Part shown: piece after piece, positions 1 through 32,867 of the stretch
How the letters are laid out: each line of letters opens with the position of its first letter
How positions within the stretch are numbered: position 1 is the first letter of the stretch
NCBI GenBank assembly: GCA_025094145.1
Contig: JALLLS010000037.1
Coordinates: forward strand, 186,001-250,000
Source: Spinellus fusiger
Taxonomy: Eukaryota; Mucoromycota; Mucoromycetes; Mucorales; Phycomycetaceae
Length of the DNA stretch: 64,000 bases
Direction of reading: 5' to 3'
Notes under the pieces: generated by a model
The model's input: the letters and a program-made list of their open reading frames with translations, nothing else
What the model was told of the DNA's origin: nothing
The model's database searches: none
Program-made: the position numbers and the translations under genes

Positions 1-1066
1 TGGCTGTAAAGACAAGAAATAGAACAAGAATCACCCCAAAATTGCAACTCAGTCACTGATATTCTTCTCTTAACATAATGTGTTATCCTTAAGCCCACAC
101 TATTTGCAGCATAACACTGCTTAAGAAAGATGTATTACAGAACTTATAGAGTTAACTCTAGTGGTCATTGTCCATAAAATAGAACCAAATTCACTTACAT
201 TGAGAACTGTATAGTCATTTATTGACTCAATATTCATAATCACTTTAACAACTACTTCATTTTAACTGGTATTAACAGTGGTGCTTAATGATAACAGGGT
301 ATTGTTTCTAATAATGTCCTTTAGGCCCAAGACAAAAAGAGTGTGAATTATTTGACTTGTGAATTATTTGACTTGTGAGTTTTATGAGCGGAGGCTAGTA
401 TATTTATCACCAGAATAGAGAAATATAAATTATTATTTGTTTTGATACTCCCCTCTTTTTGTTATTTCCCACACTGCACATACAACTCAACACCCAAGTA
501 ATCGTCAATATGAGCATAACTGAGCAAGTTAATGTGCCATTATTAACAAAGAGAAACAATAGAAGGAGGTGATAGACACTACCAATGACTATTCTAGTGA
601 TAAAAAGGTAAACAGTGTCTTCATCTGGGCTATAGCTTATTCTAATGTACAAGATACTCATTGTATTGTTATTAGGCAAGTAAATACTCTTTTCAAGTCA
701 GTCCCAGGTGGTCTTGTACAAGGTCAATAATGTATAGGGTATACTCCTGAGCATAGTTATCTATCTCCCAAGGATAAATCACAACACTTTTAGGGTGTGG
801 ATTCTATTGCTATGAGGGAATGCACTTGGGCAGTAGCTATAGTCATAATATAGTATTAGCTACATTATTATAATAAACAATTTTATTCATAAACAATATA
901 TTTTACTGATAATACAATTTGATACTGAGGTATCCACAAAAGGAAATATTATTTTTGATATCCATAAACCTTTCGTTTTAAATGCAGTTCCATAAAAGAC
1001 AAGAAATTTTCAGTTTTAAAGGTCGAAGATATCATCGCTTAAAGGCCAGAAAAATCTCCTGGTGTG
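1..1066 (-). mobile_element. MITE-T copy 1 (left arm of palindrome, cut by window start)
   Basis: This is a non-autonomous TA-flanked element continuing beyond the window start. Its sequence matches the copy at 26678-27963 in the same orientation. The right terminus reads ...AATCTCCTGGTGTG followed by TA at 1067-1068, which is also the TA of the next copy in opposite orientation. It contains no transposase. The 90-codon ORF at 407-679 (minus) recurs identically in the other arm and is not gene-like. It is assigned to the Tc1/mariner-type MITEs from the TA flanks and the CACACC... termini. Confidence 0.8.
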
Positions 1067-2135
1067 TACACACCCAAAGATATTTTTGGCCTTTAAGCGA
1101 TAATATTTCCTTCTTTTTACGTCACGGATTTCTTTCTTTTTATGGATATGTGATTAAAGTCAAAGGTCTGCAAGTATCCAAATTATTATTTCCTTTTGTA
1201 GTATACCTCAGTATCAAATTGTATTATCAGTAAAATATATTGTTTATGAATAAAATTGTTTATTATAATAATGTAGCTAATACTATATTATGACTATAGC
1301 TACTGCCCAAGTGCATTCCCTCATAGCAATAGAATCCACACCCTAAAAGTGTTGTGATTTATCCTTGGGAGATAGATAACTATGCTCAGGAGTATACCCT
1401 ATACATTATTGACCTTGTACAAGACCACCTGGGACTGACTTGAAAAGAGTATTTACTTGCCTAATAACAATACAATGAGTATCTTGTACATTAGAATAAG
1501 CTATAGCCCAGATGAAGACACTGTTTACCTTTTTATCACTAGAATAGTCATTGGTAGTGTCTATCACCTCCTTCTATTGTTTCTCTTTGTTAATAATGGC
1601 ACATTAACTTGCTCAGTTATGCTCATATTGACGATTACTTGGGTGTTGAGTTGTATGTGCAGTGTGGGAAATAACAAAAAGAGGGGAGTATCAAAACAAA
1701 TAATAATTTATATTTCTCTATTCTGGTGATAAATATACTAGCCTCCGCTCATAAAACTCACAAGTCAAATAATTCACAAGTCAAATAATTCACACTCTTT
1801 TTGTCTTGGGCCTAAAGGACATTATTAGAAACAATACCCTGTTATCATTAAGCACCACTGTTAATACCAGTTAAAATGAAGTAGTTGTTAAAGTGATTAT
1901 GAATATTGAGTCAATAAATGACTATACAGTTCTCAATGTAAGTGAATTTGGTTCTATTTTATGGACAATGACCACTAGAGTTAACTCTATAAGTTCTGTA
2001 ATACATCTTTCTTAAGCAGTGTTATGCTGCAAATAGTGTGGGCTTAAGGATAACACATTATGTTAAGAGAAGAATATCAGTGACTGAGTTGCAGTTTTGG
2101 GGTGATTCTTGTTCTATTTTTTGTCTTTACAGCCA
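1..2135. repeat. Large inverted repeat (palindrome) made by two head-to-head MITE-T copies
   Basis: Left and right arms are reverse complements with the centre at about 1068 (GGTGTGTACACACC). The outer ~930 nt of each arm are almost identical; two single-base differences were seen near the ends (around 29 and 42 on the left). The inner ~140 nt on each side of the centre are clearly diverged. The identical 90-codon ORFs at 407-679 (minus) and 1457-1729 (plus) illustrate the symmetry. Confidence 0.9.
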
Positions 2136-2310
2136 ATTCTATACTTTTCAATTGCTAAGTCAATTATCTTTGTTCTGATAGGCAGGCAGAGTTTGAAATC
2201 GACCATCTGGACAACAAAAAGGCATTTTCAAACACATTAGCCAATCATAAGAAAATTTTGATTTTATCCTCAGAATATTTCTTTTTATATCCCAAAAATC
2301 TCCTGGTGTG
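1069..2310 (+). mobile_element. MITE-T copy 2 (right arm of palindrome)
   Basis: The element is 1242 bp long. It starts CACACCCAAAGATATTTTTGG after TA 1067-1068 and ends AAAATCTCCTGGTGTG before TA 2311-2312. It is the reverse complement of the left arm: positions pair so that coordinates sum to 2136 (for example 1 with 2135). The last ~400 bp (1903-2310) are essentially identical to 7218-7625. There is no transposase. Confidence 0.8.
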
Positions 2311-2312
2311 TA

Positions 2313-4445
2313 TGTTCACAAAAGAGTGAGACAGTTTTAAATTAAATATAGCATGACCCAAGTTATGGAAGAATCTTTTCACACTATAATCAGCCCTAGA
2401 TATTATGCAAGATGTTATGAAGATAGTATCATATAAGTTCTCAGAGGACTTGTAGATATATAAGATGGATTACTGGCAAAATTATACACAGCAAAGAGAT
2501 CGATAGTCAATGTAGGCTAAGCCGTTAGTTTTTTGACTTCTTGGCAGGATGCTCATCTTGCATTGACAGAAACAGTGACAGGAGGATAGCAAGAGGTAAC
2601 ACAACACAATACAATACAATAACAGAAAGAAGTTTTCCTATAAAAACCTAATAGTAGGTCCAGAGCGACTATGTCACAGAGACATATTTCCTGAAAAATA
2701 GTAAAGAACGAATGTATACTTAAGAAATATATAACAGGTATTTCTATAGACAGTCTATCTTAAACTTCAGGTGTTAAGACATTTAGCATATATAGTTATA
2801 TGGCCTTAGTACCATATCACAAACTAAGCCAACAATCGTCAAGTCTACCTACCACACAATAAGATAAAATATTCATTATCAAAAATATCAAACCATATAA
2901 GATACTGAATTCTATACACACTATATTTAGTGTAGAGAAATAAAGAGAGAAAACAAGCTGTATTGGAAAACATACAGATTTGTTTCTTCTGATCATTTTA
3001 TATATCTAATTGCTATTACTGTGTAATACTCTTTATTAAATCTTATACTGTAGCAAACAATTAAATGTTACTTGACTCTATTATCTTACAATATATATTT
3101 ATGTAGGATCTCGAAGTATTTCTTTTAGGTCTCTCAGAAAATAAAAGTATTCTACTGAACTACTGTTTGGTCCATCAACTATATTTTAACTTGTGCATTA
3201 ATAATGATGCTCACATAACATAAATGAATGTCTATATCAACATATTTAGTTTTAACTAGAACCTAAACCAGACATTCACCGACTCTATTGTAATGTTAAG
3301 GATATATGATAATAGAAATAGGAATGGGTATAAGACACAACCTTGTAGTAGAGTATATGATACTTTTTATTATGTCTATATCGTCTATTATTTATACTAG
3401 TTCTTGACTATGGATCTACTAGTAGTTTTCCTTCTATGAGTTATTGGCTTTCTATCTATCATAGTCTTGTTCTCAACACTCTTCGTCTTGGTTTACATGT
3501 CAGTCCGTTAGGTCACGGGATCGACATATGAAACATTGTAAGTCCGGAATGGATTAACCATTACATTCATATCGGATTCTGAGTGACTTAATTTCTGTAT
3601 AATGGTTTGCTGAAACTATTAATAGCTTATATTGCTCGCTTTACAGTAGTCCTGTACTTTAGTATGCTATTCAACTTTCAGCTAGTATCTATAAATTAAG
3701 TTTCATTTTCGATTTTTAGATAATGAAAATAATATTGTAGAGCAATTTATAATTGTCGTTATGTATTTAACATTTTTCTCGTATATAGAGTAATATATTG
3801 CTTGTATTAAAGCCAATTCAAATGTGGTGTATTTTGCAGATACTATATTTTTGTATTAAAATTAAACGTGCTATTACTCATCCATGGATTTAATAAAATA
3901 AGGTTTTTTTAATACTAATGTTCACTAATAGGAAGACATGTTGAAAGTATCAAACGTGCATTTGTCCTTGTAAAGGTCAATAACCCGAGATTAAATAGAA
4001 TTCGTAAAAAGTGGAAAGTATATCTGTAAATTCAGCCTATCAAAGAAGAGAAAATGATGAGAAAAGCATATATATGTTAAGCTTTGCTAAGGATTAGTCG
4101 ATGTAAGATTAATAATATCAAACAATAGTGATTACATAATCGCTTTTTTAAATTAATCATAGTTTTACTTAGCGAAAAGACGCAAACTTTCTTTTTAGCT
4201 TAACCAGCCTTTTCCTTTACAATAAAATGACAAGAGAACCTTATACACTTTAGCCAATGAATACGTCATCTCAATTTATCCTTCTCATATTATCCTTATA
4301 TGGCCTTAAACAATTCGTGTGTTACCTTGTCTGCTTACGACTTGTCGCTATCCAAAGACACTAGTTAAACGTGTATGCACTGTAGTAGCTTAATAGAAAA
4401 TCAGCAGATCCAACCGCCGCAACAAAACAGTGATCTGTCAAAAAC
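2313..4445. other. Non-coding stretch upstream of oxidoreductase copy 1
   Basis: I see no coding ORF in this AT-rich region. It is repeated at 7628-9758. The part 3280-3570 resembles, in reverse complement, an insert found inside the MITE-T at 27226-27510, so it probably holds a further short repeat family. The last part should hold the promoter of the gene at 4509. Confidence 0.6.
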
Positions 4446-4453
4446 TATAAAAG
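4446..4453 (+). promoter_or_regulatory. TATA box of oxidoreductase copy 1
   Basis: The sequence TATAAAAG lies 56 nt before the ATG at 4509. The same element in the context ACTATAAAAGACAC is present in front of all three paralogues (4446, 9759 and 17156 on the minus strand). This conservation supports a core-promoter role. Confidence 0.6.
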
Positions 4454-4508
4454 ACACTGTTAGTTTTGAGATCCCCATTATTTTCATCACACTATTCCTT
4501 CTATTAAC

Positions 4509-5546
4509 ATGGTCTCAAACACTAAAGTCATCTTCTCCAAGATCCCCATTGGTCTTCCTGTCGTTGGTGAACACCTGACTGTTAGAAAAGATGAGATCAA
4601 TCTTGACAAGGAGCTCGCTGAGGATGAATTTCTCATCAAGACACTTTATCTTTCTGTTGATCCCTACATGCGTCCTCGTATGCGTGATGCAAGCATTGAC
4701 TCGTACACACCCGCATTCCCTCTGAATGAGCCTATGAACGGCCATGCCATTAGTGTTGTTCTTAAGTCCAATAACGACAAATTCAAGGTTGATGATTTAG
4801 TCTATGGTATGGCCTACTTTTCTGAATACACACACGTCCCTGCTGCCTTTGCCAGTTACTTTGAAGTGCGCAATGAGTTCCGCGAATCAAAGTTTCCCCT
4901 CTCTTATTCGGTTGGTGTCCTGGGCATGCCTGGAATGACAGCCTACACTGGTTTGCTCAACATTGGTAAACCCAAAGCTGGTGAGACTCTCTATGTATCT
5001 GCTGCTTCTGGTGCTGTGGGTCAGTTGGTGGGTCAAATTGGAAAGGTTCTCGGTCTTCATGTCGTTGGATCAGCTGGTTCAGAAGACAAAGTACAGTGCC
5101 TCAAGGACATTGGATTTGATGGTGTCTTCAACTACAAGACAGGTGATATCAGCTCCAAGCTCAAGGGGTTGTGCCCCAAAGGCATTGACATCTACTTTGA
5201 TAATGTGGGTGGTGAGATGCTCGATATTGTGCTTGAACAAGCCAACACCTTTGGTCGCATTATAGCTTGCGGCATGATCTCTCAGTACAACAGTCTTGAC
5301 ACTTACCAGATCAAGAATATCTTGAATGTTGTTTCCAAGAGATTAGTGCTTCAGGGAATGATTGTTTTTGATTATGAAAGTCAGACTGAAGAGTTCAGAA
5401 CTACAATGACTGCATGGTTGAAGGATGGCAAAGTGCAGTACAAAGAAACTGTTGCTGAGGGTATTGAGAACACACCCCAAGCATTATTGGACTTATTCCA
5501 GGGCAAAAACTTTGGAAAACAAGTTGTTAAAGTAGCTGATTTGTAA
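4509..5546 (+). CDS. NADP-dependent MDR oxidoreductase (PTGR1/alkenal reductase type), copy 1
   Basis: This is a single-exon gene of 345 aa in the zinc-independent medium-chain dehydrogenase/reductase superfamily, leukotriene B4 dehydrogenase/prostaglandin reductase branch. That family reduces the C=C bond of alpha,beta-unsaturated aldehydes and ketones with NADPH in the cytosol. Visible motifs are DPYMR (residues 51-55, a family hallmark), the Rossmann nucleotide loop AASGAVG (165-171), the NYK lysine (210) expected near the NADP 2'-phosphate, YFDNVGGE (229-236) and CGMISQYN (254-261). The length is normal for the family. The start is the ATG just after the TATA-containing leader, and AATAAA follows the stop at 5578. 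It is identical to the copy at 9822-10859 and diverged from the one at 16065-17102. The exact substrate cannot be told. Confidence 0.9.
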   Translation: MVSNTKVIFSKIPIGLPVVGEHLTVRKDEINLDKELAEDEFLIKTLYLSVDPYMRPRMRDASIDSYTPAFPLNEPMNGHAISVVLKSNNDKFKVDDLVYGMAYFSEYTHVPAAFASYFEVRNEFRESKFPLSYSVGVLGMPGMTAYTGLLNIGKPKAGETLYVSAASGAVGQLVGQIGKVLGLHVVGSAGSEDKVQCLKDIGFDGVFNYKTGDISSKLKGLCPKGIDIYFDNVGGEMLDIVLEQANTFGRIIACGMISQYNSLDTYQIKNILNVVSKRLVLQGMIVFDYESQTEEFRTTMTAWLKDGKVQYKETVAEGIENTPQALLDLFQGKNFGKQVVKVADL

Positions 5547-6350
5547 TATGTATATAAAAAAAAGTAAAAAAGTAAACAATAAAACCTTATTCTGAATGAA
5601 TTACATTATAGTCTTGATACATTTTTAATTATTCGACTTTTTATATGGTCGTCTCTCTTATATCTTTATGATTATTGTGAGATCTATACGCTTATTAAAA
5701 AAACTACTCTATTTAGAAAGGCAGTTGCATGAAATGCATATAGACACAATTATGGTACAGCTTACATTGATTTCATTTGATAATTTATACCCTTAAGTTA
5801 GTAGTATCTTTATAAATACACACACAAACAGTTTTGTTTGCGTATATTATTCCTTTTATAAACAAAAACATTATAAAAATTATCATTATGTATCATGTTT
5901 AAAATATAATTTCATGTATGTTAACAGTTAAATAAATAAACATATATATAAATACCTTCTGTGTTTATGATGTATAGCATAGGCTTTATATAATATTGTT
6001 ATTATAATTCTTAGAAACATAGATTTGCTATGGCCACCTTAAAAACTCATGCATTCCTCTTTTTTCCATAAATGTTCTAAACACGGTACTGCTTTTATCA
6101 TAAAGACAACAAGTGTCGTGTTCCGACTTCAATCCAAAATATTCTCTATGAATTGGTCAACATGAGTAGTATGCTGTGACATTCAGAATACTCTATGTAA
6201 GCTTGAGTGCACACAAGTACCATAGTACATCTCTGTATCATCTCACTAATCGGTCGTAACTACAAATCAACCTTCTAAGCTCAGTGTACCATCGGACACT
6301 TAATAAAAGCTACTATCATCTATATATCTTTAGTGGATAAGTATGACCTA
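5547..6350. other. Intergenic, downstream of oxidoreductase copy 1
   Basis: This stretch is AT-rich, with an AATAAA signal at 5578-5583 just after the stop codon and no further gene visible up to the MITE-T at 6351. It is duplicated at 10860-11663. Confidence 0.6.
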
Positions 6351-7625
6351 CACACCCAAAGATTTTTCTGGCTTTTAGGCGGTGATATCCCCTTCCTTTT
6401 ACGTCCATCCCAAATATTGCCCTTATATAGAAATGTGTTTAAAATCAAAGGTTTGCAAGTATCTAAATTATTGTTTCCTTTTGTGGATATCTCAATATTA
6501 AATTGTATTATCAATGGAATATATTGTTTATTGTCGTGAAGACATTTTCCATATTTGGATGGATCACTTCTTTTGGAATGAGCACTCATTTATTACCAAA
6601 CTAAGAAGGAGACTCTATTGAATATCAAGGGATGTCGATAGTTCAGAGCATTTCGATAGTTAGCCCCTGAATCTATACGATTAGAAAAGTATAAAAGACG
6701 TAGTAATTCCATTTAATAAACAACAGAGTTTAACTACACGTTCTACTGTTCCGTATACCTTTGGCCTAAAAACCCAAAGACGACATTATGAATAAAATTG
6801 TTTATTGTAATAGTATAGATAATACTATAGTATGACTATAGCTACTGCTGTTCTAGGTGTATTCCTTCATAGCAATAGAATATATACCCTAAAAGCTTTG
6901 TACTTTATCCTTGGGTGATAGATAACTATGCTCAGGAGTATATCCTAGACACTGTTGATAGTATAGAAGACCATCTGAGACTGACTTGAAAGGAGTCTTT
7001 ACTTGCCTAATAACAATACAATGAGTGTTTTGTGGATTACAATGAGCTCAAACCCAGATGAAGACACTGTTTACCTTTTTACTATCAGAATAGTCTTTGG
7101 TGGTGTCTACAATCTCCTTCTATTGTTTCTCTTTGTTAATAATGGCACATTACCTTGCTCAGTTATGCTCATCTTGACGAGTACTTGGGTGTTAAGTTGT
7201 ATGTACAGTGTTTATGGATATTGAGTCAATAAATGACTATACAGTTCTCAATGTAAGTGAATTTGGTTCTATTTTATGGACAATGACCACTAGAGTTAAC
7301 TCTATAAGTTCTGTAATACATCTTTCTTAAGCAGTGTTATGCTGCAAATAGTGTGGGCTTAAGGATAACACATTATGTTAAGAGAAGAATATCAGTGACT
7401 GAGTTGCAGTTTTGGGGTGATTCTTGTTCTATTTTTTGTCTTTACAGCCAATTCTATACTTTTCAATTGCTAAGTCAATTATCTTTGTTCTGATAGGCAG
7501 GCAGAGTTTGAAATCGACCATCTGGACAACAAAAAGGCATTTTCAAACACATTAGCCAATCATAAGAAAATTTTGATTTTATCCTCAGAATATTTCTTTT
7601 TATATCCCAAAAATCTCCTGGTGTG
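6351..7625 (+). mobile_element. MITE-T copy 3 (chimeric)
   Basis: The element is 1275 bp, flanked by TA at 6349-6350 and 7626-7627. It starts CACACCCAAAGATTTTTCTGG and ends AATCTCCTGGTGTG. The left part (to 7217) matches the copy at 11664, while the right part (7218-7625) matches the copy at 1903-2310. It is therefore a recombinant of its two neighbours. Small ORFs in it are not conserved as genes. Confidence 0.85.
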
Positions 7626-7627
7626 TA

Positions 7628-9758
7628 TGTTCACAAAAGAGTGAGACAGTTTTAAATTAAATATAGCATGACCCAAGTTATGGAAGAATCTTTTCACACT
7701 ATAATCAGCCCTAGATATTATGCAAGATGTTATGAAGATAGTATCATATAAGTTCTCAGAGGACTTGTAGATATATAAGATGGATTACTGGCAAAATTAT
7801 ACACAGCAAAGAGATCGATAGTCAATGTAGGCTAAGCCGTTAGTTTTTTGACTTCTTGGCAGGATGCTCATCTTGCATTGACAGAAACAGTGACAGGAGG
7901 ATAGCAAGAGGTAACACAACACAATACAATACAATAACAGAAAGAAGTTTTCCTATAAAAACCTAATAGTAGGTCCAGAGCGACTATGTCACAGAGACAT
8001 ATTTCCTGAAAAATAGTAAAGAACGAATGTATACTTAAGAAATATATAACAGGTATTTCTATAGACAGTCTATCTTAAACTTCAGGTGTTAAGACATTTA
8101 GCATATATAGTTATATGGCCTTAGTACCATATCACAAACTAAGCCAACAATCGTCAAGTCTACCTATCACACAATAAGATAAAATATTCATTATCAAAAA
8201 TATCAAACCATATAAGATACTGAATTCTATACACACTATATTTAGTGTAGAGAAATAAAGAGAGAAAACAAGCTGTATTGGAAAACATACAGATTTGTTT
8301 CTTCTGATCATTTTATATATCTAATTGCTATTACTGTGTAATACTCTTTATTAAATCTTATACTGTAGCAAACAATTAAATGTTACTTGACTCTATTATC
8401 TTACAATATATATTTATGTAGGATCTCGAAGTATTTCTTTTAGGTCTCTCAGAAAATAAAAGTATTCTACTGAACTACTGTTTGGTCCATCAACTATATT
8501 TTAACTTGTGCATTAATAATGATGCTCACATAACATAAATGAATGTCTATATCAACATATTTAGTTTTAACTAGAACCTAAACCAGACATTCACCGACTC
8601 TATTGTAATGTTAAGGATATATGATAATAGAAATAGGAATGGGTATAAGACACAACCTTGTAGTAGAGTATATGATACTTTTTATTATGTCTATATCGTC
8701 TATTATTTATACTAGTTCTTGACTATGGATCTACTAGTAGTTTTCCTTCTATGAGTTATTGGCTTATCTATCATAGTCTTGTTCTCAACACTCTTCGTCT
8801 TGGTTTACATGTCAGTCCGTTAGGTCACGGGATCGACATATGAAACATTGTAAGTCCGGAATGGATTAACCATTACATTCATATCGGATTCTGAGTGACT
8901 TAATTTCTGTATAATGGTTTGCTGAAACTATTAATAGCTTATATTGCTCGCTTTACAGTAGTCCTGTACTTTAGTATGCTATTCAACTTTCAGCTAGTAT
9001 CTATAAATTAAGTTTCATTTTCGATTTTTAGATAATGAAAATAATATTGTAGAGCAATTTATAATTGTCGTTATGTATTTAACATTTTTCTCGTATATAG
9101 AGTAATATATTGCTTGTATTAAAGCCAATTCAAATGTGGTGTATTTTGCAGATACTATATTTTTGTATTAAAATTAAACGTGCTATTACTCATCCATGGA
9201 TTTAATAAAATAAGGTTTTTTTAATACTAATGTTCACTAATAGGAAGACATGTTGAAAGTATCAAACGTGCATTTGTCCTTGTAAAGGTCAATAACCCGA
9301 GATTAAATAGAATTCGTAAAAAGTGGAAAGTATATCTGTAAATTCAGCCTATCAGAAGAAGAGAAAATGATGAGAAAAGCATATATATGTTAAGCTTTGC
9401 TAAGGATTAGTCGATGTAAGATTAATAATATCAAACAATAGTGATTACATAATCGCTTTTTTAAATTAATCATAGTTTTACTTAGCGAAAAGACGCAAAC
9501 TTTCTTTTTAGCTTAACCAGCCTTTTCCTTTACAATAAAATGACAAGAGAACCTTATACACTTTAGCCAATGAATACGTCATCTCAATTTATCCTTCTCA
9601 TATTATCCTTATATGGCCTTAAACAATTCGTGTGTTACCTTGTCTGCTTACGACTTGTCGCTATCCAAAGACACTAGTTAAACGTGTATGCACTGTAGTA
9701 GCTTAATAGAAAATCAGCAGATCCAACCGCCGCAACAAAACAGTGATCTGTCAAAAAC
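7628..9758. other. Non-coding stretch upstream of oxidoreductase copy 2
   Basis: This is the duplicate of 2313-4445. No gene is seen. Confidence 0.6.
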
Positions 9759-9766
9759 TATAAAAG
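9759..9766 (+). promoter_or_regulatory. TATA box of oxidoreductase copy 2
   Basis: TATAAAAG occurs in the same context as at 4446, 56 nt before the ATG at 9822. Confidence 0.55.
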
Positions 9767-9821
9767 ACACTGTTAGTTTTGAGATCCCCATTATTTTCAT
9801 CACACTATTCCTTCTATTAAC

Positions 9822-10859
9822 ATGGTCTCAAACACTAAAGTCATCTTCTCCAAGATCCCCATTGGTCTTCCTGTCGTTGGTGAACACCTGACTGTTAGAA
9901 AAGATGAGATCAATCTTGACAAGGAGCTCGCTGAGGATGAATTTCTCATCAAGACACTTTATCTTTCTGTTGATCCCTACATGCGTCCTCGTATGCGTGA
10001 TGCAAGCATTGACTCGTACACACCCGCATTCCCTCTGAATGAGCCTATGAACGGCCATGCCATTAGTGTTGTTCTTAAGTCCAATAACGACAAATTCAAG
10101 GTTGATGATTTAGTCTATGGTATGGCCTACTTTTCTGAATACACACACGTCCCTGCTGCCTTTGCCAGTTACTTTGAAGTGCGCAATGAGTTCCGCGAAT
10201 CAAAGTTTCCCCTCTCTTATTCGGTTGGTGTCCTGGGCATGCCTGGAATGACAGCCTACACTGGTTTGCTCAACATTGGTAAACCCAAAGCTGGTGAGAC
10301 TCTCTATGTATCTGCTGCTTCTGGTGCTGTGGGTCAGTTGGTGGGTCAAATTGGAAAGGTTCTCGGTCTTCATGTCGTTGGATCAGCTGGTTCAGAAGAC
10401 AAAGTACAGTGCCTCAAGGACATTGGATTTGATGGTGTCTTCAACTACAAGACAGGTGATATCAGCTCCAAGCTCAAGGGGTTGTGCCCCAAAGGCATTG
10501 ACATCTACTTTGATAATGTGGGTGGTGAGATGCTCGATATTGTGCTTGAACAAGCCAACACCTTTGGTCGCATTATAGCTTGCGGCATGATCTCTCAGTA
10601 CAACAGTCTTGACACTTACCAGATCAAGAATATCTTGAATGTTGTTTCCAAGAGATTAGTGCTTCAGGGAATGATTGTTTTTGATTATGAAAGTCAGACT
10701 GAAGAGTTCAGAACTACAATGACTGCATGGTTGAAGGATGGCAAAGTGCAGTACAAAGAAACTGTTGCTGAGGGTATTGAGAACACACCCCAAGCATTAT
10801 TGGACTTATTCCAGGGCAAAAACTTTGGAAAACAAGTTGTTAAAGTAGCTGATTTGTAA
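9822..10859 (+). CDS. NADP-dependent MDR oxidoreductase (PTGR1/alkenal reductase type), copy 2
   Basis: The 345-aa protein is identical to the one at 4509-5546, with the same DPYMR, AASGAVG and YFDNVGGE motifs. Promoter, 5' leader and 3' flank are duplicated too, so both copies should be expressed alike. It belongs to unit 2 of the 5.3 kb tandem duplication and probably raises the dosage of the same enzyme. No inactivating change is seen. Confidence 0.9.
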   Translation: MVSNTKVIFSKIPIGLPVVGEHLTVRKDEINLDKELAEDEFLIKTLYLSVDPYMRPRMRDASIDSYTPAFPLNEPMNGHAISVVLKSNNDKFKVDDLVYGMAYFSEYTHVPAAFASYFEVRNEFRESKFPLSYSVGVLGMPGMTAYTGLLNIGKPKAGETLYVSAASGAVGQLVGQIGKVLGLHVVGSAGSEDKVQCLKDIGFDGVFNYKTGDISSKLKGLCPKGIDIYFDNVGGEMLDIVLEQANTFGRIIACGMISQYNSLDTYQIKNILNVVSKRLVLQGMIVFDYESQTEEFRTTMTAWLKDGKVQYKETVAEGIENTPQALLDLFQGKNFGKQVVKVADL

Positions 10860-11663
10860 TATGTATATAAAAAAAAGTAAAAAAGTAAACAATAAAACCT
10901 TATTCTGAATGAATTACATTATAGTCTTGATACATTTTTAATTATTCGACTTTTTATATGGTCGTCTCTCTTATATCTTTATGATTATTGTGAGATCTAT
11001 ACGCTTATTAAAAAAACTACTCTATTTAGAAAGGCAGTTGCATGAAATGCATATAGACACAATTATGGTACAGCTTACATTGATTTCATTTGATAATTTA
11101 TACCCTTAAGTTAGTAGTATCTTTATAAATACACACACAAACAGTTTTGTTTGCGTATATTATTCCTTTTATAAACAAAAACATTATAAAAATTATCATT
11201 ATGTATCATGTTTAAAATATAATTTCATGTATGTTAACAGTTAAATAAATAAACATATATATAAATACCTTCTGTGTTTATGATGTATAGCATAGGCTTT
11301 ATATAATATTGTTATTATAATTCTTAGAAACATAGATTTGCTATGGCCACCTTAAAAACTCATGCATTCCTCTTTTTTCCATAAATGTTCTAAACACGGT
11401 ACTGCTTTTATCATAAAGACAACAAGTGTCGTGTTCCGACTTCAATCCAAAATATTCTCTATGAATTGGTCAACATGAGTAGTATGCTGTGACATTCAGA
11501 ATACTCTATGTAAGCTTGAGTGCACACAAGTACCATAGTACATCTCTGTATCATCTCACTAATCGGTCGTAACTACAAATCAACCTTCTAAGCTCAGTGT
11601 ACCATCGGACACTTAATAAAAGCTACTATCATCTATATATCTTTAGTGGATAAGTATGACCTA
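10860..11663. other. Intergenic, downstream of oxidoreductase copy 2
   Basis: This is a copy of 5547-6350 and shows no gene. Confidence 0.6.
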
Positions 11664-12937
11664 CACACCCAAAGATTTTTCTGGCTTTTAGGCGGTGATA
11701 TCCCCTTCCTTTTACGTCCATCCCAAATATTGCCCTTATATAGAAATGTGTTTAAAATCAAAGGTTTGCAAGTATCTAAATTATTGTTTCCTTTTGTGGA
11801 TATCTCAATATTAAATTGTATTATCAATGGAATATATTGTTTATTGTCGTGAAGACATTTTCCATATTTGGATGGATCACTTCTTTTGGAATGAGCACTC
11901 ATTTATTACCAAACTAAGAAGGAGACTCTATTGAATATCAAGGGATGTCGATAGTTCAGAGCATTTCGATAGTTAGCCCCTGAATCTATACGATTAGAAA
12001 AGTATAAAAGACGTAGTAATTCCATTTAATAAACAACAGAGTTTAACTACACGTTCTACTGTTCCGTATACCTTTGGCCTAAAAACCCAAAGACGACATT
12101 ATGAATAAAATTGTTTATTGTAATAGTATAGATAATACTATAGTATGACTATAGCTACTGCTGTTCTAGGTGTATTCCTTCATAGCAATAGAATATATAC
12201 CCTAAAAGCTTTGTACTTTATCCTTGGGTGATAGATAACTATGCTCAGGAGTATATCCTAGACACTGTTGATAGTATAGAAGACCATCTGAGACTGACTT
12301 GAAAGGAGTCTTTACTTGCCTAATAACAATACAATGAGTGTTTTGTGGATTACAATGAGCTCAAACCCAGATGAAGACACTGTTTACCTTTTTACTATCA
12401 GAATAGTCTTTGGTGGTGTCTACAATCTCCTTCTATTGTTTCTCTTTGTTAATAATGGCACATTACCTTGCTCAGTTATGCTCATCTTGACGAGTACTTG
12501 GGTGTTAAGTTGTATGTACAGTGTTTATGGATATTGAGTCAATAAATGACTATACAGTTCTCAATGTAAGTGAATTTGGTTCTATTTTATGGACAATGAC
12601 CACTAGAGTTAATTCAGTGTGTTCTATAATAAATATTCTTTAAACAGTGTCATACTGCAAATACTATGGGCTTATAGTTAACACATTATGTTAAACAATA
12701 AATACAGTGACTGAGTTGCAATTTTGGGGTGATTCTTGTTCTATTTTTTGTCTTTACAGCCAATTCTATACTTTATAATTACAAAGTCAGTAGCTATTGC
12801 TAAAACAGGCAGGTAGAATTTGAAATAGCTCATTTAGACAGCGAAAAAGTATTTTAAAACACATTATCCAATCATAAGAATATTACAATTTTATTCTCAG
12901 GATATTTCCTTATATATCCCAAAAATCTCCTGGTGTG
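11664..12937 (+). mobile_element. MITE-T copy 4
   Basis: The element is 1274 bp with flanking TA at 11662-11663 and 12938-12939. It has the same termini as copy 3. The left 949 nt up to 12612 equal copy 3; beyond that the right part diverges (12613 onward) and resembles the copy at 26678 more closely. Confidence 0.85.
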
Positions 12938-13148
12938 TATTGTGTAATATTTTTTACTTGTTATAAAAATATACAGACTTTAGATATACTATTTTCGGAA
13001 ACTATTTGTTCATCTTTTTATGGACTTACAGACAGTATTTTATTCAACGATTTCGAATGGATTTTTTCTTCAAAAAGTGAACAAAGAATCTCATTAAATA
13101 GTTTATTATTAAATAGGATCGGTATTTGAGAATTCTCAGACCCATGTA

Positions 13149-14704
13149 CACCTTTTTCGGAAAGTATTCGCACAACCTCAGAAAAAAATCGCATAGTTTT
13201 TTTTTCACTTTTCGCATACTTTATATTTTACTTTTTGCACAATTTCATAAATTCTTTTTGCACACTTTTCGAAATACAATTTTTTCAACAATGAGCTTAC
13301 AAATCTACTATGAAGATGGACAGGGAAATACTATCGATGAATCGGGCAATGAGCCCATATTGATGGATGTAGATAAAGAATATTTTCCTCTTCAAAACAT
13401 CGAAGACTACAGTACTTACTTGGACTTAAAACCACCCGAGAAGCCTCAGCCAAAACCCAAGGCCACCAAAAAGGATACAACTTCTACTCCAGCACCTGTG
13501 TCTTACTACAAGAAACATGGTGATGATGTTAAAGGTCACCTTTTTCATCTGGTTTATGAACTAGATATGACTGCAGGTAAAGCAGCTAAGCAGTTGGGTA
13601 TTGCTCGTAGAACCGCATACGACTGGATTGAAAGAGATCAGGAACAAATCATGCAAAATATGAACAAAGATCTCGAAGTTGAGCCAGTAGAGACCCCAAA
13701 AATGGGCCGACCAGCATTATTAAATGAAGACCATAAGAAAGATCTTTCTGAAAAGTTTTTGGATCACCTTTCTGCAACGTTAGATCAAGCAATGGATAGT
13801 TTTACTGAACAGTTCAAAGACTTGAAAGTTGCCAAGACAACGGTTTATAGCTTTATGACAGAAAAGTGTGCCTTGTCATTTAAGAAAGCACAACTTTATT
13901 CAAAGGAAAGAAACTCGCCTAAGAGTATTGAGAAAAAGTTTGACTGGGTTATCAGATGGAACCAAACAGACATGGATTACAATAGTAACTGTTTGTTTAT
14001 TGATGAGTCCGCTTTTCATATAAATCTGAAAAGAACCATGGCTTGGTCAAAGAAAGGAACCAGAGCAGAGGTTGTTCAGCTCATAACAAGAGCAAAAACA
14101 ACAACAATTTTGGGAGCTATATCTTCTCGTGGCATTATTAATGTTAAAGTAATAGTGCCTTATACTTCTTCACCAAGAAAAAGAAAAGCAAACGGAGCAA
14201 CCAAAATGCAGAAAACTACTGTAACAGTTACTGGTCATTACTTTAACTTTGTTGCAAGCACTTTGGATATTTTGGATCTTTACAATGAATATAAAGGACA
14301 TTATATAATAATGGATAATGCACCTATCCACAAAGCTGAAAGTATTAGCAGACTTATTGAAAGTCGTGGCTATGGATGCATATACCTTCGACCCTACTCT
14401 CCTGAGCTTAATCCCATCGAGCAATTTTGGTCTGTTGTGAAGAGTAAGCTTAAAAGAGAAAAGCTCTTAGAAGATGAGACGTTAAACATGAGGATCACTG
14501 AAGCATGTAGCAATGTTTTTATCAGTGATCTTAAGGGATTTTTTCGTTACTCTTCTTCAAAATTTAAGACATGTTTAAGTAGACATACCCTTTAATAAAT
14601 TTCGCACACTTTGTGCAAAATGAATTTATGAAATTGTGCAAAAAGTAAAATATAAAGTGTGCGATTTTTTTCTGAGGTTGTGCGAATACTTTCCGAAAAA
14701 GGTG
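13149..14704 (+). mobile_element. Intact Tc1-like DNA transposon (DD34E)
   Basis: The element is 1556 bp with TA target duplications at 13147-13148 and 14705-14706. The terminal inverted repeats begin CACCTTTTTCGGAAAGTATT; the first 44 nt match perfectly. The similarity continues for a further ~45 nt after an extra ~23 nt present only in the left arm. One intact transposase ORF fills the centre. Perfect termini and an open frame suggest recent, possibly ongoing, activity. Confidence 0.9.
13291..14595 (+). CDS. Tc1/mariner-type DDE transposase
   Basis: The protein has 434 aa, taking the ATG at 13291 (MSLQIYYEDG). The open frame extends upstream to 13126, but that part is translated terminal repeat and flank. 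A helix-turn-helix region is followed by the linker GRPALLNEDH. The DDE catalytic triad is in place: D238 in FIDES, D342 in MDNAPIH and E377 in NPIEQFW, i.e. 34 residues between the last two (DD34E). It cuts and re-inserts the element at TA dinucleotides. It is similar along its length to the broken transposase at 20165-21484. No frameshift or stop is seen. Confidence 0.92.
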   Translation: MSLQIYYEDGQGNTIDESGNEPILMDVDKEYFPLQNIEDYSTYLDLKPPEKPQPKPKATKKDTTSTPAPVSYYKKHGDDVKGHLFHLVYELDMTAGKAAKQLGIARRTAYDWIERDQEQIMQNMNKDLEVEPVETPKMGRPALLNEDHKKDLSEKFLDHLSATLDQAMDSFTEQFKDLKVAKTTVYSFMTEKCALSFKKAQLYSKERNSPKSIEKKFDWVIRWNQTDMDYNSNCLFIDESAFHINLKRTMAWSKKGTRAEVVQLITRAKTTTILGAISSRGIINVKVIVPYTSSPRKRKANGATKMQKTTVTVTGHYFNFVASTLDILDLYNEYKGHYIIMDNAPIHKAESISRLIESRGYGCIYLRPYSPELNPIEQFWSVVKSKLKREKLLEDETLNMRITEACSNVFISDLKGFFRYSSSKFKTCLSRHTL

Positions 14705-14706
14705 TA

Positions 14707-15230
14707 TAACACTCTTTTCGTCTCCATTTGTCTGCATTTATTTTCTCTCCTATTTATTCTTGGTGAAATAAATGCACATAAATCACCAAGAATAAACATA
14801 AACTATTGGCTGTTCATTCAACCTGATGTTTAAGCAACAACAAAAAATAACTAGCAAAATTTTCCATTAGACTGGATAAGATAAATATGGAAGGGTATTA
14901 GGTCTTCATCCTTTATCTCCCACTAAACATATTGTTTATAATGTATTATAGAAAGATGAGAACAGAGGTATTAATTATAGAAGGAAATTAAGAATATTTA
15001 TTATTATTATTATGAATGATTAAAAAGACAATAGTAAAAACGACAAAGATAAGAAGTGTACAAATCACACGTTGTGTGCCAAAAAGATGGAAGATTAGAA
15101 ATACTTGAATTTTTTAATATGGTTCGTATGGTATGTTATATTTTTTTTTATATAAAGGAACCTGAGCTCAATTTTATTATGAAAATCTATGCGAAGTAGC
15201 TGTAGAGAGTCACTAGTTTTTTTTTTCTAA
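14707..15230. other. Intergenic, AT-rich
   Basis: Nothing recognisable is seen apart from short ATT runs near 15000. The sequence right after the transposon (14750-14800) contains a short imperfect inverted repeat around TTCTTGGTGAAATAAATG. Confidence 0.45.
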
Positions 15231-16064: not shown

Positions 16065-17102
16065 TTAAAAATCAGCTACTTTAACAACTTGTTTTCCAAA
16101 GTTTTTGCCCTGGAATAAGTCCAATAATGCTTGGGGTGTGTTCTCAATACCCTCAGCAACGGTTTCTTTGTACTGCACTTTGCCATCCTTCAACCATGCA
16201 GTCATTGCAGTTCTGAACTCCTTGATCTGGTGGTCGAAATCAAGAACGATCATACCTTGAACCACTAATCTTCTATTAAGGATGTTTATCATATTTTTTG
16301 GCTGGTAAGAGTCAAGACTGTTGTACTGAGAGATCATGCCACAGACTATAATACGACCAAAGTTGTTGGCTTGTTCAAGCACAATATCGAGCATCTCACC
16401 ACCCACATTATCAAAGTAGATGTCAATGCCTTTGGGGCACAACCCCTTGAGCTTGGAGCTGATATCACCTGTCTTGTAGTTGAAGACACCATCAAATCCA
16501 ATGTCCTTGAGGTACTGTACTTTGTCTTCTGAACCAGCTGATCCAACGACATGAAGACCGAGAACCTTTCCAATTTGACCCACCAACTGACCCACAGCAC
16601 CAGAAGCAGCAGATACATAGAGAGTCTCACCAGCTTTGGGTTTACCAATGTTGAGCAAGCCAGTGTAGGCTGTCATTCCAGGCATGCCCAGGACACCAAC
16701 CGAATAAGAGAGGGGAAACTTTGATTCGTGGAACTCATTGCGCACTTCAAAGTAACTGGCAAAGGCAGCAGGGACGTGTGTGTATTCAGATAAGTGGGTT
16801 ATACCATAGACTAAATCATCAACCTTGAATTTGTCGTTGTTGGACTTGAGAACAACACTAATGGCATGGCCGTTCATAGGACCATTTAAATCAAAGGCAG
16901 GTATGTATGATTTAATGCTTGCATCACGCATACAAAGACGCATGTAGGGATCAACAGAAAGATAAAGTGTCTTGATGAGAAATTCACCTTCAGCGAGTTC
17001 TTTGTCGAGATTAATCTCATCTTTTACAATATGTAAATGCTTTCCAATGACAGGAAGGCCAGTAGGAATCTTAGAAAAGATCACTTCAGTGTTTGAGACC
17101 AT
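16065..17102 (-). CDS. NADP-dependent MDR oxidoreductase (PTGR1/alkenal reductase type), diverged paralogue
   Basis: The protein has 345 aa starting at the ATG at 17102; the in-frame ATG at 17147 would add 15 residues that are not conserved in the other copies. It has the same motifs as the tandem copies: DPYMR, AASGAVG and YFDNVGGE. The middle of the protein (about residues 105-260) is almost identical to the tandem copies. The N-terminal third and the segment around 265-300 differ substantially, a mosaic that suggests partial gene conversion. The TATA element upstream is conserved. It lies in inverted orientation 5.2 kb from the end of copy 2. Confidence 0.88.
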   Translation of the reverse strand: MVSNTEVIFSKIPTGLPVIGKHLHIVKDEINLDKELAEGEFLIKTLYLSVDPYMRLCMRDASIKSYIPAFDLNGPMNGHAISVVLKSNNDKFKVDDLVYGITHLSEYTHVPAAFASYFEVRNEFHESKFPLSYSVGVLGMPGMTAYTGLLNIGKPKAGETLYVSAASGAVGQLVGQIGKVLGLHVVGSAGSEDKVQYLKDIGFDGVFNYKTGDISSKLKGLCPKGIDIYFDNVGGEMLDIVLEQANNFGRIIVCGMISQYNSLDSYQPKNMINILNRRLVVQGMIVLDFDHQIKEFRTAMTAWLKDGKVQYKETVAEGIENTPQALLDLFQGKNFGKQVVKVADF

Positions 17103-17704: not shown

Positions 17705-20022
17705 AAAACATTAATTATTGTATTTTGCTCTTGCCATGGACAATCCTGTTTAGTTTGTAGTAGTATTTCTCAAATGTTTTTGCTTTTAGGCTTCAGTTTG
17801 CATGTTGTTTTACTTGTTCAATGGAATTACCCAACATCACTGCCTTTGTACTTGCTGCTGATCTCACTGAGTGTGGAGTATATTCCTCTAGAATACCTGC
17901 TGCTTTCATATTCCCCTTCACCTATGCTGCTACTGTGGCCAATTTAATTTCACGAAGTTGTTTTCCTGTATTGTTCAGATAGGTCAAGAATAATGTATGC
18001 TCTGCTTGTAGATGGTCTCGTTTGTTCTCTGTTTTTTCAGAAAGATACTCAAGGTTTTTTACCACACAAATTTCTTGCATATCTGCTTCTTGTATTACTC
18101 CCAATCTTATCGTTTTTTGTTGGCTTCTTTGGATTTTCTTGTATGTATGATCACCCCTTCCAACCTTTGGTCTTGATTGTAAATCAGTATGACATCTCTG
18201 TGCTGAAGCCTGCCTATGCCTCCCCTCGGCCTCCACATTGTGTATATGCACAACAATAATATAGTCTTCTGTTGTAGTTTGTATGTCGACAGCTTTTCTG
18301 TTAGAGATAATGTTCTCCTAATATGCATTATCATATCGTCCAAGTCCCATGTCACCAGTTGTGTTCTTGTAGGATTTCTTACGCTTATTTGTTTCTTTGC
18401 TTGGGAAAAATCCCTTATATCAAAGTCATCTGCCAGGTTACATCTCTCTGGATGTATAATGCGAAATACTGATATAATAGCCGAACAATATCCATTCAAG
18501 GTGTTGTGTGTCTTGTTTGGATGGGCCATCAAAAATTCTAGGACTTAGTTAATGTTGTACTCCTCTAGATCCTTATTATTTGTTCTGCATCATGACACGT
18601 ATTTCATCCAGTTATTGTCATAAGCCTTTTCTGTATTTGTTCTTCTGGCTTTTGCCAAGTGTGTCAATAAATTCTTGCTTAAACCATTGGCTTTCCTTTT
18701 GTTGTTGATGATCTCCATGCGGTAAGAGTCCACTTGTTGCTCATTTTCCAGTGTAAAGTATGTGATATATGTCTCACCTTCATAAGCATAGGGTACCAAA
18801 ACTGTCCCTTCCATAATAGTGTCACCAAGGTTGCTTCTCTCGTCCCATCTTTCATCTTCAATATTTTGGGAATCAGTTTCCATTGCGGAAATATGTAAAG
18901 ATTGTCCTTTTGCCATGACTGTTGGAATGCATCTGTCTTTTCTGAAAACGGGTCCTCTTGGTAACTACAGTATCTTGGACACTGGTAATTGTTCCATGAT
19001 ACTAATGCATCCATCTAAATCCTTGTTCTCCAAGACCTCTTGATCATTTTCATGAATGGCTTGGGAATCGTTACTTTATATAATGGTTTCCTCACCCTGC
19101 TCAAAGCATCTATTTGTATGTTATGGATACCAGGAATAATTTGGTATTGTACTTGAAACTTGTAGTCGGTGCAAAGGTCTTGGATCTTCACTGCTAATTC
19201 TTGTACTATCAGAGAAGCAGTACCTCCTGTCTTCGTTACGTATTTGATCGCTGTCATATTGTCTGAAAACACTCTCAAGGACATATTCCTTAAGAATCTG
19301 GCATGCATCTTGAGTAAAAAGTATATTGCTTGTAATTATCTCAAATTTATGGAGTTCATTTTGTCCTTTCCCCCCAAAAAAATCCTGATGTGCTTATCAT
19401 CTTGGAGTGGACTCCCAATCCTGAATCCGAGGCATCCACATAAATTGTTGCTGTTTGTTCTGGGAAAGGAATCTTGTGTATAAGTAGATCATTTTTCTCT
19501 GCCAGATACTTCTTCCACCACTGGATTTCCTGCAATGCTGGTGATGATAAGGGGCATTGTACTTCCCAAGAGTGTCTCTGGATATATAGGCTCCATGCTT
19601 GGTCCTTATGCAGGTATCTTATATGTATAAGTGCTTCCCCCAATAAACTCGATATCCATCTGTATGTTCCTACTGCTGGTTTTTTTTTTGCTTGTTTCAG
19701 TCGCTGTAAAAGCTTTGCCATCTTGGCCTGTAGTAGGTAGATCTTCATTTTTTTGTATCAAATGTGAATCACAGATACTCCTGGCTCTTTTCTGGAGTAG
19801 GTCATACTTTTGGCCTTGTTTATGATGAAACCTAGCAACTCCAAGTGCTTGATAATGTACACTACTATTTCCACCATTTTCTTCTTAGATTTTTCCAGAA
19901 TGCAGACGTCGTCCAAATAATACACTAGTCTTATCCCTTTTTTTCTCAATGGCTCCACTGCATGTCTCATGAGTTTGGAGAATATTCTTGGCGCTACACT
20001 CAGACCAAATGCTAATGATTTG
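17705..20022 (-). mobile_element. Decayed DIRS-type tyrosine-recombinase retrotransposon
   Basis: Read on the minus strand, the order is reverse transcriptase (20022-19758), RNase H (19748-19015) and tyrosine recombinase (18532-17705). RT shows FGLSVAPRIFSKLMR and the YLDD catalytic box. RNase H shows IYVDASDSGLGV, VFSDNMTAIKYV and PGIHNIQIDALSR. The recombinase shows an arginine motif TMWRPRGGIGRL, HSVRSAAS (H-x-x-R box) and FEKYYY (catalytic tyrosine). RT-RH-YR order is diagnostic of DIRS elements, which integrate by recombinase rather than integrase. Several frameshifts and stops (for example TGA at 19758-19760, a shift near 19350 in a G run, and a shift near 18130) show it is dead. The N-terminal RT half is missing: a Tc1 element sits at the break. 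Confidence 0.85.
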
Positions 20023-20024
20023 TA

Positions 20025-21621
20025 CACTATTTTCACTTATTATTGTCGCACTTTTAGAGAAAAATATGTCGCATTAATAAATTAAAACTTGACATAGTAA
20101 TAGATTTAAAACTGGCGTATTCTAAGTACTTAAGGCTTTTTTACATTTTAATTTTCTTAAAAAAATGAATAACATTGTGCACGAAGACGGCCAAGGAAAT
20201 ATCTATAATGATGAGGGAATAGCCTTTACACTAGTGGAGATGGAGGTAGACGGGGAGACGTACCCCATTGAGACGGTTACAAATTTCGGGATGTACCTTG
20301 ACCTCAAACCACCTGAGAAGCCAGAAAGAAGAACTTTACAACAATCCGTAGACAGAGATGTCAATACGGAAGAGGATAACAGAGCTCCTGGCATCCACAG
20401 GCATTACAAAGATTCTGAGAAAGAGCAGTTATTTGTGTTGATTTATGAAAGGGGTATGAGCGTCAGAGCTACTGCACTGAAACTTCAAATCCACCCACGC
20501 ACTGCTCAGCAATGGTACTCAAACGATCAGCAGAATCCTCGGACATTCATTGCTAGAAAAGAAGGTAGTGGAAGGCCAGTTGGTAAACCAGCACTACTGG
20601 ACGAAAGCCATAAAAGATTCTTAGTCGATTTATTGGACGATCAGCCCTCTTTAGTCTTGGATCAAATGATGGAGAGTTTGAGAACGTCTTTTATTGATTT
20701 AGAGATATCGAAAACAGCTCTCTACAATTTTGTCACCAAAAATTGTAAGATCAGTCTGAAAAGAGCCCATTTTCATTCAGTTGATCGTAATAGTCCTGAA
20801 AAGATCAAGAATCAAAAGGAGTGGGTACAGAAATGGATGGAGACAGACATGGACTACATGAGCAACTGTGTCTTTATAGATGAGGCGGCATTCCACATCA
20901 ACATGAAGCGTACTTTTGCTTGGTCAAAAGTAGGTACTTGTGCAGTAGTAAAAGTACCAAGAACGAGGGCCAAAACAACAATTATTATGGGAGCAACATC
21001 TGCTCAAGGCCTTGTCAACATAAAAGTAAGACGGCCTCGAATGTTGCCTGTTTCAAAGAAGAGAAGAACTACTGGATCTGGTGGGCCTTCTCAAAAACAA
21101 AGCAAAGGCACTGTTACTGGCCACTATATCAATTTCTTGAACGATACAATGGATGTCATGGACAATTTTCCAGATGTTTTCAAGGATAATTACTTGATTA
21201 TGGACAACGCCCCCATCCACATGAATGAAGACATTAAAAGCTTCATTGAAGGCCGTGGGTACAAGTGTGTTTATCTTTCCCCTTAGTCACCAGAGTTGAA
21301 TCCCATTGAGCAATTCTGGTCTGTTTGCAAAAGCAGGTTAAAAAGAGAAAGACTCTTGGAAGAAGAAACTCTGTCATCTAGAATCGCCGATGCATCTAAC
21401 CAAGTTCTTCTCGGTGACCTCAGAGGGTTTTGCAAATACTCTGTCGATAGATTTGAGGATTGCTTACAAGAGAAGCCTCTTTAAAAATAAAGCATTGATG
21501 TCACATTTGTCGCATCCAACTTATACGCCATCTTTTAATTTATTAATGCGACAAGTTTTTTTCAACTTGTGTGCTAAGTTTTTTTTTCCCAAAAGTGCGA
21601 CAATAATAAGTGAAAATAGTG
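20025..21621 (+). mobile_element. Tc1-like DNA transposon, almost intact
   Basis: The element is 1597 bp. The left terminus starts CACTATTTTCACTTATTATT after TA at 20023-20024; the right terminus is its reverse complement ending at 21621. The left TA lies inside the DIRS reverse transcriptase frame, so the element inserted into the retrotransposon. The right flank is TG instead of TA and runs straight into another relic, so the original right flank has been lost or mutated. The transposase is open except for one stop. Confidence 0.85.
20165..21484 (+). pseudogene. DDE transposase with a single in-frame TAG
   Basis: The protein would be 439 aa. It opens MNNIVHEDGQGN, has the linker GRPVGKPALLDESH, and carries catalytic D in FIDEAAFH and D347 in MDNAPIH. 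Codon 374 (21284-21286) is TAG where the homologue at 13291 has a tyrosine codon. The frame then continues with SPELNPIEQFW (E382, DD34E) to the natural end at 21484. Because the stop lies between the second D and the E, the truncated product would lack a full active site. No other damage is visible. Confidence 0.85.
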
Positions 21622-23281: not shown

Positions 23282-23304
23282 ATTATTACTATTATTATTA
23301 TTAC

Positions 23305-23402
<98 letters not shown>
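23282..23402. repeat. (ATT)n microsatellite, ~120 bp
   Basis: This is a run of about 40 ATT/TTA units with two or three ATTACT interruptions at its left end. ORFs reading through it (poly-Tyr or poly-Leu) are artefacts. Confidence 0.97.
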
Positions 23403-32788: not shown

Positions 32789-32867
32789 TGTGGTTGTGAT
32801 TGTGGTTGTGGTTGTGATTGTGGTTGTGGTTGTGGTTGTGGTTGTGGTTGTGGTTGTGATTGTGGTT
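32789..32867. repeat. (GTTGTG)n-type minisatellite
   Basis: About 13 tandem hexamers TGGTTG/TGATTG occur here; the minus-strand translation is a His-Asn repeat. There is no sign that it is coding. Confidence 0.9.

What the first reader, a model, noticed from the sequence alone, without database searches (positions are those of the whole stretch)
1903..12612. Gene duplication by unequal crossing over between MITE copies, breakpoint within 82 bp
Copy 3 (6351-7625) is a hybrid: its left part equals copy 4 (11664-) and its right part equals copy 2 (-2310). All three share an identical 82-nt tract (1903-1984, 7218-7299, 12531-12612), which must contain the crossover. This is the product expected from recombination between two flanking MITEs, and it doubled the oxidoreductase gene.
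Basis: seen in the sequence. Interest (0 to 1): 0.75.

Follow-up and report, generated by a model that had tools for sequence, protein, structure and literature searches.

The report
Gene doubled by MITE recombination
In what is most likely a mushroom-parasitic fungus, two copies of a small mobile element on either side of a metabolic gene recombined and recently doubled the gene; the process is ordinary, but here it is preserved very cleanly.

Summary
The window carries a 5.3-kb direct tandem duplication (unit 1 starts at 1903, unit 2 at 7218), bounded and split by three copies of a TA-flanked non-autonomous DNA transposon (M2, M3, M4). At 147 substitution sites where M2 and M4 differ, M3 matches M4 at all 87 left of the tract and M2 at all 60 right of it, so there is one switch, inside an 82-bp tract identical in all three. 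Between the two units I found one substitution and two small indels. Both carry an identical intact 345-aa double-bond reductase gene. Three element copies with a hybrid in the middle is the signature of recombination between non-allelic direct repeats; unequal crossing over is the simplest version. Assembly artefact and reversed-ends transposition fit worse.

As a mechanism this is textbook. Less expected: the only other locus found for this gene (contig C180) is also doubled, by another route: a 4.2-kb inverted duplication, 99.7% identical, around a mariner-like transposon. More near-identical inverted repeats surfaced in a small, selected sample, so this genome may be unusually prone to local duplication. 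The organism is most likely Spinellus fusiger, by protein match. No reads or second isolate were available.

The parts
1..1066 (-). M1, element copy 1 (continues about 205 bp left of the window); head to head with M2
   Evidence: Self-comparison with the 10 kb upstream; alignment
1067..1068 (.). single TA shared by M1 and M2; centre of GGTGTG-TA-CACACC, the only exact match to that 14-mer in the 38-Mb genome
1069..2310 (+). M2, element copy 2: left parent of the crossover
   Evidence: Ends CACACC...GGTGTG
1903..1984 (+). 82-nt identical tract in M2
1903..7217 (+). tandem unit 1 (5315 bp)
4509..5546 (+). double-bond reductase gene, copy A (345 aa, no stop inside)
6114..6348 (.). another short repeat (about 235 bp, here called MITE-B; its ends were not examined) abutting the TA of M3; the unit-2 copy at 11427-11661 abuts the TA of M4
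   Evidence: positions 568-802 of the query 5547-6348
6351..7625 (+). M3, hybrid element: left part M4-like, right part M2-like
   Evidence: 87 of 87 left substitution sites M4-like, 60 of 60 right ones M2-like
7218..7299 (+). 82-nt tract that holds the crossover
7218..12530 (+). tandem unit 2 (5313 bp)
9822..10859 (+). double-bond reductase gene, copy B, identical to A over the coding frame
11664..12937 (+). M4, element copy 4: right parent of the crossover
12531..12612 (+). 82-nt identical tract in M4
13147..14708 (+). mariner-like transposon (DDE_3 transposase, ends TACACCTTTTTCGG); relatives elsewhere in the genome, one at the centre of the C180 inverted duplication
16065..17102 (-). third, older copy of the reductase gene, 91% identical to A and B

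Best explanation
Two copies of one non-autonomous TA-flanked transposon, M2 and M4, stood in the same orientation on either side of a 4.0-kb segment carrying a double-bond reductase gene. M2 on one chromatid paired with M4 on the sister or homologous chromatid, and a crossover inside their longest identical stretch (82 bp) gave one chromatid with M2 - segment - hybrid M3 - segment - M4. Shown: the tandem units, the single switch, its position, the near-identity of the units and the identical intact genes. Inferred: that recombination was reciprocal unequal crossing over rather than a one-sided homology-driven repair event, and that the assembly is right.
For: 87 of 87 left and 60 of 60 right substitution sites follow one switch. 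The switch lies in the longest exact M2-M4 tract, 82 bp against 53 for the next. Three element copies, as the NAHR model demands (PMC3744419, abstract and passages). No difference between the units from 4042/9355 to 7300 (so M3-left equals M4-left) and none from 1903 to 2852 (so M2-right equals M3-right). The tract is not specially conserved in the family: mean majority-base frequency 0.899 against 0.923 for the rest of the module in 27 rows (one place, window 26676-27094, enters twice; matches shorter than about 330 bp were dropped), so the breakpoint follows this pair's homology and not a family-wide motif. The units carry three private differences, which one unit entered twice in the assembly would not give. 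The window has no N runs.
Against: One assembly, no reads and no second isolate. Reciprocal and one-sided recombination leave the same duplicated product.
Confidence: 0.84

Rival explanations
1. Homology-driven but one-sided repair: break-induced replication or synthesis that started in one element and ended in the other, or excision of the segment as a circle and reinsertion by homology.
For: Gives the same three-copy product with one hybrid (inference). The M1/M2 pair suggests that non-reciprocal exchange happens here: 42 differing columns next to the shared TA, then none for about 890 bp (window 43-933 against 1203-2093), then divergence again.
Against: Needs more steps than one crossover; nothing in the sequence asks for them. 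Not separable from a crossover on this evidence.
Confidence: 0.12
2. Assembly artefact: a repeat loop entered twice at the 82-bp tract.
For: The switch sits in the longest shared tract, where a short-word assembly graph would also loop. The sequencing method is not known to me.
Against: The two units differ by one substitution, a 3-nt indel and a 1-nt indel that are not homopolymer-length changes. A loop through one real unit would give identical units. No N runs.
Confidence: 0.05
3. Reversed-ends (alternative) transposition using the outer ends of two nearby elements, as shown for maize Ac/Ds.
For: It makes tandem direct duplications next to DNA transposons (PMC3744419, abstract and passages).
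Against: Its breakpoints lie at element ends with target-site duplications, and the duplications of that paper lacked an element at one breakpoint. Here the switch is inside the element and all three elements are present.
Confidence: 0.02
4. M3 is an independent insertion or an old mosaic element, and the duplication has another cause.
For: The family is mosaic: M3 and M4 share a deletion and an insertion relative to M2.
Against: M3 is identical to M4 over the whole left part and to M2 over the whole right part, and the unit boundaries coincide with the switch.
Confidence: 0.01

Closest known systems
TE-mediated non-allelic homologous recombination, e.g. the model for EPSPS tandem duplication in Kochia scoparia (PMC6808082)
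   Same: Mobile elements up- and downstream of a gene; unequal crossing over between them gives more gene copies (abstract and passages read).
   Different: There the element is about 16 kb with four putative coding sequences and the model is called hypothetical; here the element is 1.2-1.3 kb and the crossover is placed within 82 bp.
ace-1 amplicons of Anopheles gambiae (PMC5137868)
   Same: NAHR is named as probably the most parsimonious cause of duplications with conserved breakpoints near a transposable element (passages read).
   Different: 203-kb amplicon with a Harbinger transposase at one end; no hybrid element is described in the passages read.
Bar duplication of Drosophila (transposon at the breakpoint)
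   Same: Duplication tied to a transposon. Only the title of Tsubota et al. 1989 was seen, in the reference list of PMC6808082; the rest is recalled.
   Different: Retrotransposon and a far larger segment (recalled).
Foldback inverted duplications of yeast (PMC10622511, PMC10164571)
   Same: Relevant to the C180 locus only: inverted repeats anneal within one strand and prime an inverted duplication (PMC10622511: start of abstract in listing; PMC10164571: passages).
   Different: Those are laboratory rearrangements; C180 is a finished product in one assembly and its cause is inferred.

Membership tests
Tandem duplication by NAHR between transposable elements | Three element copies in direct orientation: outer two parental, middle one hybrid | tested here: met
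   M2, M3, M4 all in the same orientation
Tandem duplication by NAHR between transposable elements | One switch of parental type in the middle copy, in a stretch of shared homology | tested here: met
   87/87 and 60/60 substitution sites; switch inside an exact 82-bp tract
Tandem duplication by NAHR between transposable elements | Reciprocal deletion or single-unit haplotype exists in the population | not testable with these tools
   No second isolate was at hand: the genome search says the window's genome has no relatives held here
MITE of a TA-targeting (Tc1/mariner-like) superfamily | Terminal inverted repeats and TA target-site duplication | tested here: met
   TA|CACACC...GGTGTG|TA at M1-M5; 1058 matches in the genome to TACACACCNRRAGATTTT, 0 to its reversed control. 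The superfamily is inferred from the TA alone
MITE of a TA-targeting (Tc1/mariner-like) superfamily | Short (usually under about 800 bp, recalled) and without coding capacity | tested here: inconclusive
   M2-M4 are 1242-1275 bp; of the ORFs of 80 aa or more listed, the longest lying largely in M1-M4 has 90 aa; those small ORFs were not searched against families
MITE of a TA-targeting (Tc1/mariner-like) superfamily | Related autonomous element with the same ends | not tested
   The neighbouring mariner-like element has different ends, TACACCTTTTTCGG; no autonomous partner was sought
NADPH-dependent double-bond (2-alkenal/CurA-like) reductase, MDR superfamily | ADH_N_2 plus ADH_zinc_N domains and full-length similarity to solved members | tested here: met
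   Pfam PF16884 and PF00107 above cut-off; best solved relatives pulegone reductase, allyl alcohol dehydrogenase, ketone/zingerone synthase and 2-alkenal reductase, E below 1e-85. Substrate unknown

The most novel reading that the evidence does not exclude
This fungus duplicates DNA locally through its transposons at an unusual rate, mostly as near-identical inverted duplications with a single-copy spacer and sometimes, as here, as direct tandems, with gene conversion keeping some copies alike. The reductase gene was doubled at both of its loci by two different routes because extra dose is favoured.
Probability: 0.3. Interest if true: 0.6.

Novelty: new member of a known kind. Interest (0 to 1): 0.34.

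Why it matters
It is a clean natural record of ectopic recombination between short transposons that are only 81-87% identical over the matching pieces, with a crossover interval of 82 bp, in the order Mucorales, where the library searched gave no paper on such elements (Mucorales with miniature inverted-repeat elements: 0 papers; Spinellus fusiger with genome: 0; Spinellus, Phycomyces and transposable elements: 0). It shows how little homology sufficed. If the inverted duplications seen nearby prove common, the species would be a natural system for asking how transposon ends seed palindromes.

Tried and rejected
Conserved recombination motif in the 82-bp tract: rejected; the tract is no more conserved than the rest of the module (0.899 against 0.923), and 30 of 351 pairs among 27 rows share an exact stretch of 82 bp or more (median 44). 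Those rows come from 28 of the cut loci plus C129 and C180, that is from the best matches to M4; matches under about 330 bp were dropped, M1 is not among the rows, one place enters twice, and the pairs include M2/M3.

The neighbouring mariner-like element as mobiliser of the M elements: not supported; the ends differ.

Frequent head-to-head insertion of M elements into each other's TA: not supported; the exact 14-mer joint of M1/M2 occurs once in the genome, against 1058 matches to the end motif. Diverged joints would be missed.

Palindromes as unsplit-adapter read artefacts: unlikely for C180, C121, C35, C150 and C145, which have spacers of 1.4 to 6.7 kb, four of the five with differing arms; not excluded without reads.

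Genome-wide base rate of recent duplications: could not be measured.

Two papers from the listings were read in passages for a MITE-crossover precedent and gave none: PMC12405883 did not explicitly test unequal crossing over; in PMC5137868 'mite' meant the animal. Searches were otherwise seen as listings only, apart from the four papers cited with passages.

Full report
WHERE IT IS. The window is G000:C129:186001-250000 in a 38.1-Mb, 197-contig genome. The listed protein most like the reductase outside the window (91%) is given as Spinellus fusiger on a contig of 147,128 bp, which is the length of contig C180 here. I take the organism to be S. fusiger, Mucorales, Phycomycetaceae; its habit as a parasite of mushrooms is recalled.

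THE OBSERVATION. The window compared with itself gives a direct repeat, 1879-7628 against 7194-12940. In a global alignment of the two units, the differences outside the element ends are C/T at 2852/8167, a 3-nt indel at 3450/8764 and a 1-nt indel at 4042/9355. Seven differences fall in 1883-1902, left of the tract; all others lie from 7300 on.

THE ELEMENTS. Copies M1-M5 begin and end TA|CACACC...GGTGTG|TA, the layout of a TA-targeting DNA transposon. The end motif TACACACCNRRAGATTTT occurs 1058 times (532 forward, 526 reverse) with 0 matches to the reversed control. In an M4 search of the genome only 40 of 1925 first-look candidates were scored, so copy numbers from it are lower bounds. The elements are mosaic: M3 and M4 carry an insertion of about 258 bp and lack about 230 bp relative to M2.

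THE CROSSOVER. Of 645 informative columns between M2 and M4 (147 of them substitutions), M3 follows M4 at the first 584 (87 substitutions) and M2 at the last 61 (60 substitutions); none is of a third kind. The switch lies between 7217 and 7300. The 82-bp tract is the longest exact match between M2 and M4, followed by 53, 39 and 29 bp. It is not a specially conserved stretch of the family. A crossover in the longest perfect homology is what homology-dependent recombination predicts.

WHICH MECHANISM. PMC3744419 sets the criterion in print: duplications by NAHR between two elements should contain three copies, one at each outer end and one between the units, while the duplications made there by reversed-ends transposition lack an element at one breakpoint (abstract and passages). 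The window meets the NAHR prediction. I cannot separate a reciprocal crossover from one-sided repair that used the same homology. An assembly loop is unlikely because the units have private differences.

THE GENE. Each unit holds the same 1038-bp open frame, with no difference, an NADPH-type double-bond reductase by domains and by nearest solved structures. A protein search of the genome gave seven matches: five over the full length and two weak partial ones (10 of 10 candidates scored; introns are not modelled). The five are A and B in the tandem, a third at 16065-17102 (-) in the window, and two on C180. A against the third copy: dN 0.061, dS 0.219, ratio 0.28; A against C180: dN 0.044, dS 0.165, ratio 0.26. 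So the older copies were kept under constraint, and the tandem pair is far younger than that split.

THE OTHER LOCUS OF THE SAME GENE. On C180 the gene is also doubled, but inverted: arms 124171-128327 and 129700-133865, 99.7% identical, with 3 substitutions and one 9-nt indel, two of the substitutions within 8 bp of the outer edge. The 1372-bp spacer is the inside of a mariner-like transposon. In the window, the matching site 3' of the gene (near 5685-5690...GATCTATACGC...) has no transposon, and the sequence beyond it is not what stands on the other side of the transposon on C180; homology of that block ends at 5689, though a later piece, 5719-5936, matches at 86% further out in the C180 arms, so the two loci also differ by other rearrangement. 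It appears that the transposon inserted beside a single gene and that the flank on one side was then copied, inverted, to the other. Foldback at the transposon's inverted ends would give this (mechanism: PMC10164571, passages; PMC10622511, start of abstract in listing). That is inference.

EXCHANGE ELSEWHERE NEARBY. M1 and M2, head to head around one TA, have 42 differing columns in the stretch next to the TA (to 934/1202), then none until 42/2094 (about 890 bp). Beyond that come two substitutions and a 31-nt indel within about 50 bp, and from -43/2148 to the end strong divergence. A gene-conversion tract between inverted copies is the natural reading. The 14-mer joint occurs once in the genome.

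A POSSIBLE PATTERN. In one search with the short repeat MITE-B (40 of 437 candidates scored, 42 rows) I took 41 places, dropping one row that matched another part of the query. Six pairs lie within 12 kb of each other, five inverted and one direct (the tandem itself); random placement gives 0.51 pairs on average and at most five in 10,000 trials. Random placement ignores clustering of insertions, and the search kept the best matches to my query, so pairs copied together are favoured. I read four of the five inverted pairs; C10 was not read. C121: arms 2886 bp, 99.4%, spacer 4.7 kb. C35: at least 1494 bp, 100%, spacer 6.7 kb (the arm reaches the end of what I fetched). C165: a 1-kb palindrome without spacer, 96.5%. 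C116: only 315 bp at 88.6%, an ordinary pair (all). From other searches: C150, picked for equal scores of two inverted mariner copies, has arms of 1971 bp at 98.3%, spacer 5.4 kb; C145, picked because two inverted M copies share a 415-bp exact stretch, is a 998-bp element pair at 99.6%, spacer 2.2 kb, with reading frames between. This is a selected sample, suggestive and not a census.

VERDICT. TE-mediated unequal exchange that doubles a gene is known, so the finding is a new, unusually clean member of a known kind. The better open question is whether this genome duplicates DNA around transposons unusually often.

Noticed in passing
C180:124171-133865 (L007, L008): 4.2-kb inverted duplication, 99.7% identical, of the same reductase gene around a mariner-like transposon; the window's matching site has no transposon.
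   Followed up: partly
window 1-2310: Head-to-head elements M1/M2 share one TA and are identical over about 890 bp between divergent flanks, which reads as gene conversion; the joint 14-mer occurs once in the genome.
   Followed up: yes
L058/L062/L063 (C121:757072-767552), L059 (C35:413501-423147), L057 (C150:111609-120952), L019/L020 (C145:233157-237349), L061 (C165:466282-467280): Further inverted repeats, 96.5-100% identical, with spacers of 0-6.7 kb, in a small sample chosen by paired hits.
   Followed up: partly
L012 (C99:3264-7113) and L013 (C146:17097-20926): 3.7 kb at 99.1% on a 12.7-kb contig and a 258-kb contig: alternative haplotype, duplicated contig or another duplication.
   Followed up: no
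window 17922-20036: Reading frames on the - strand that look to me like a tyrosine recombinase and reverse transcriptase of a DIRS-like element (by eye; not searched).
   Followed up: no
window 23275-23400 and 32787-32867: Short-period tandem repeats seen in the self-comparison.
   Followed up: no
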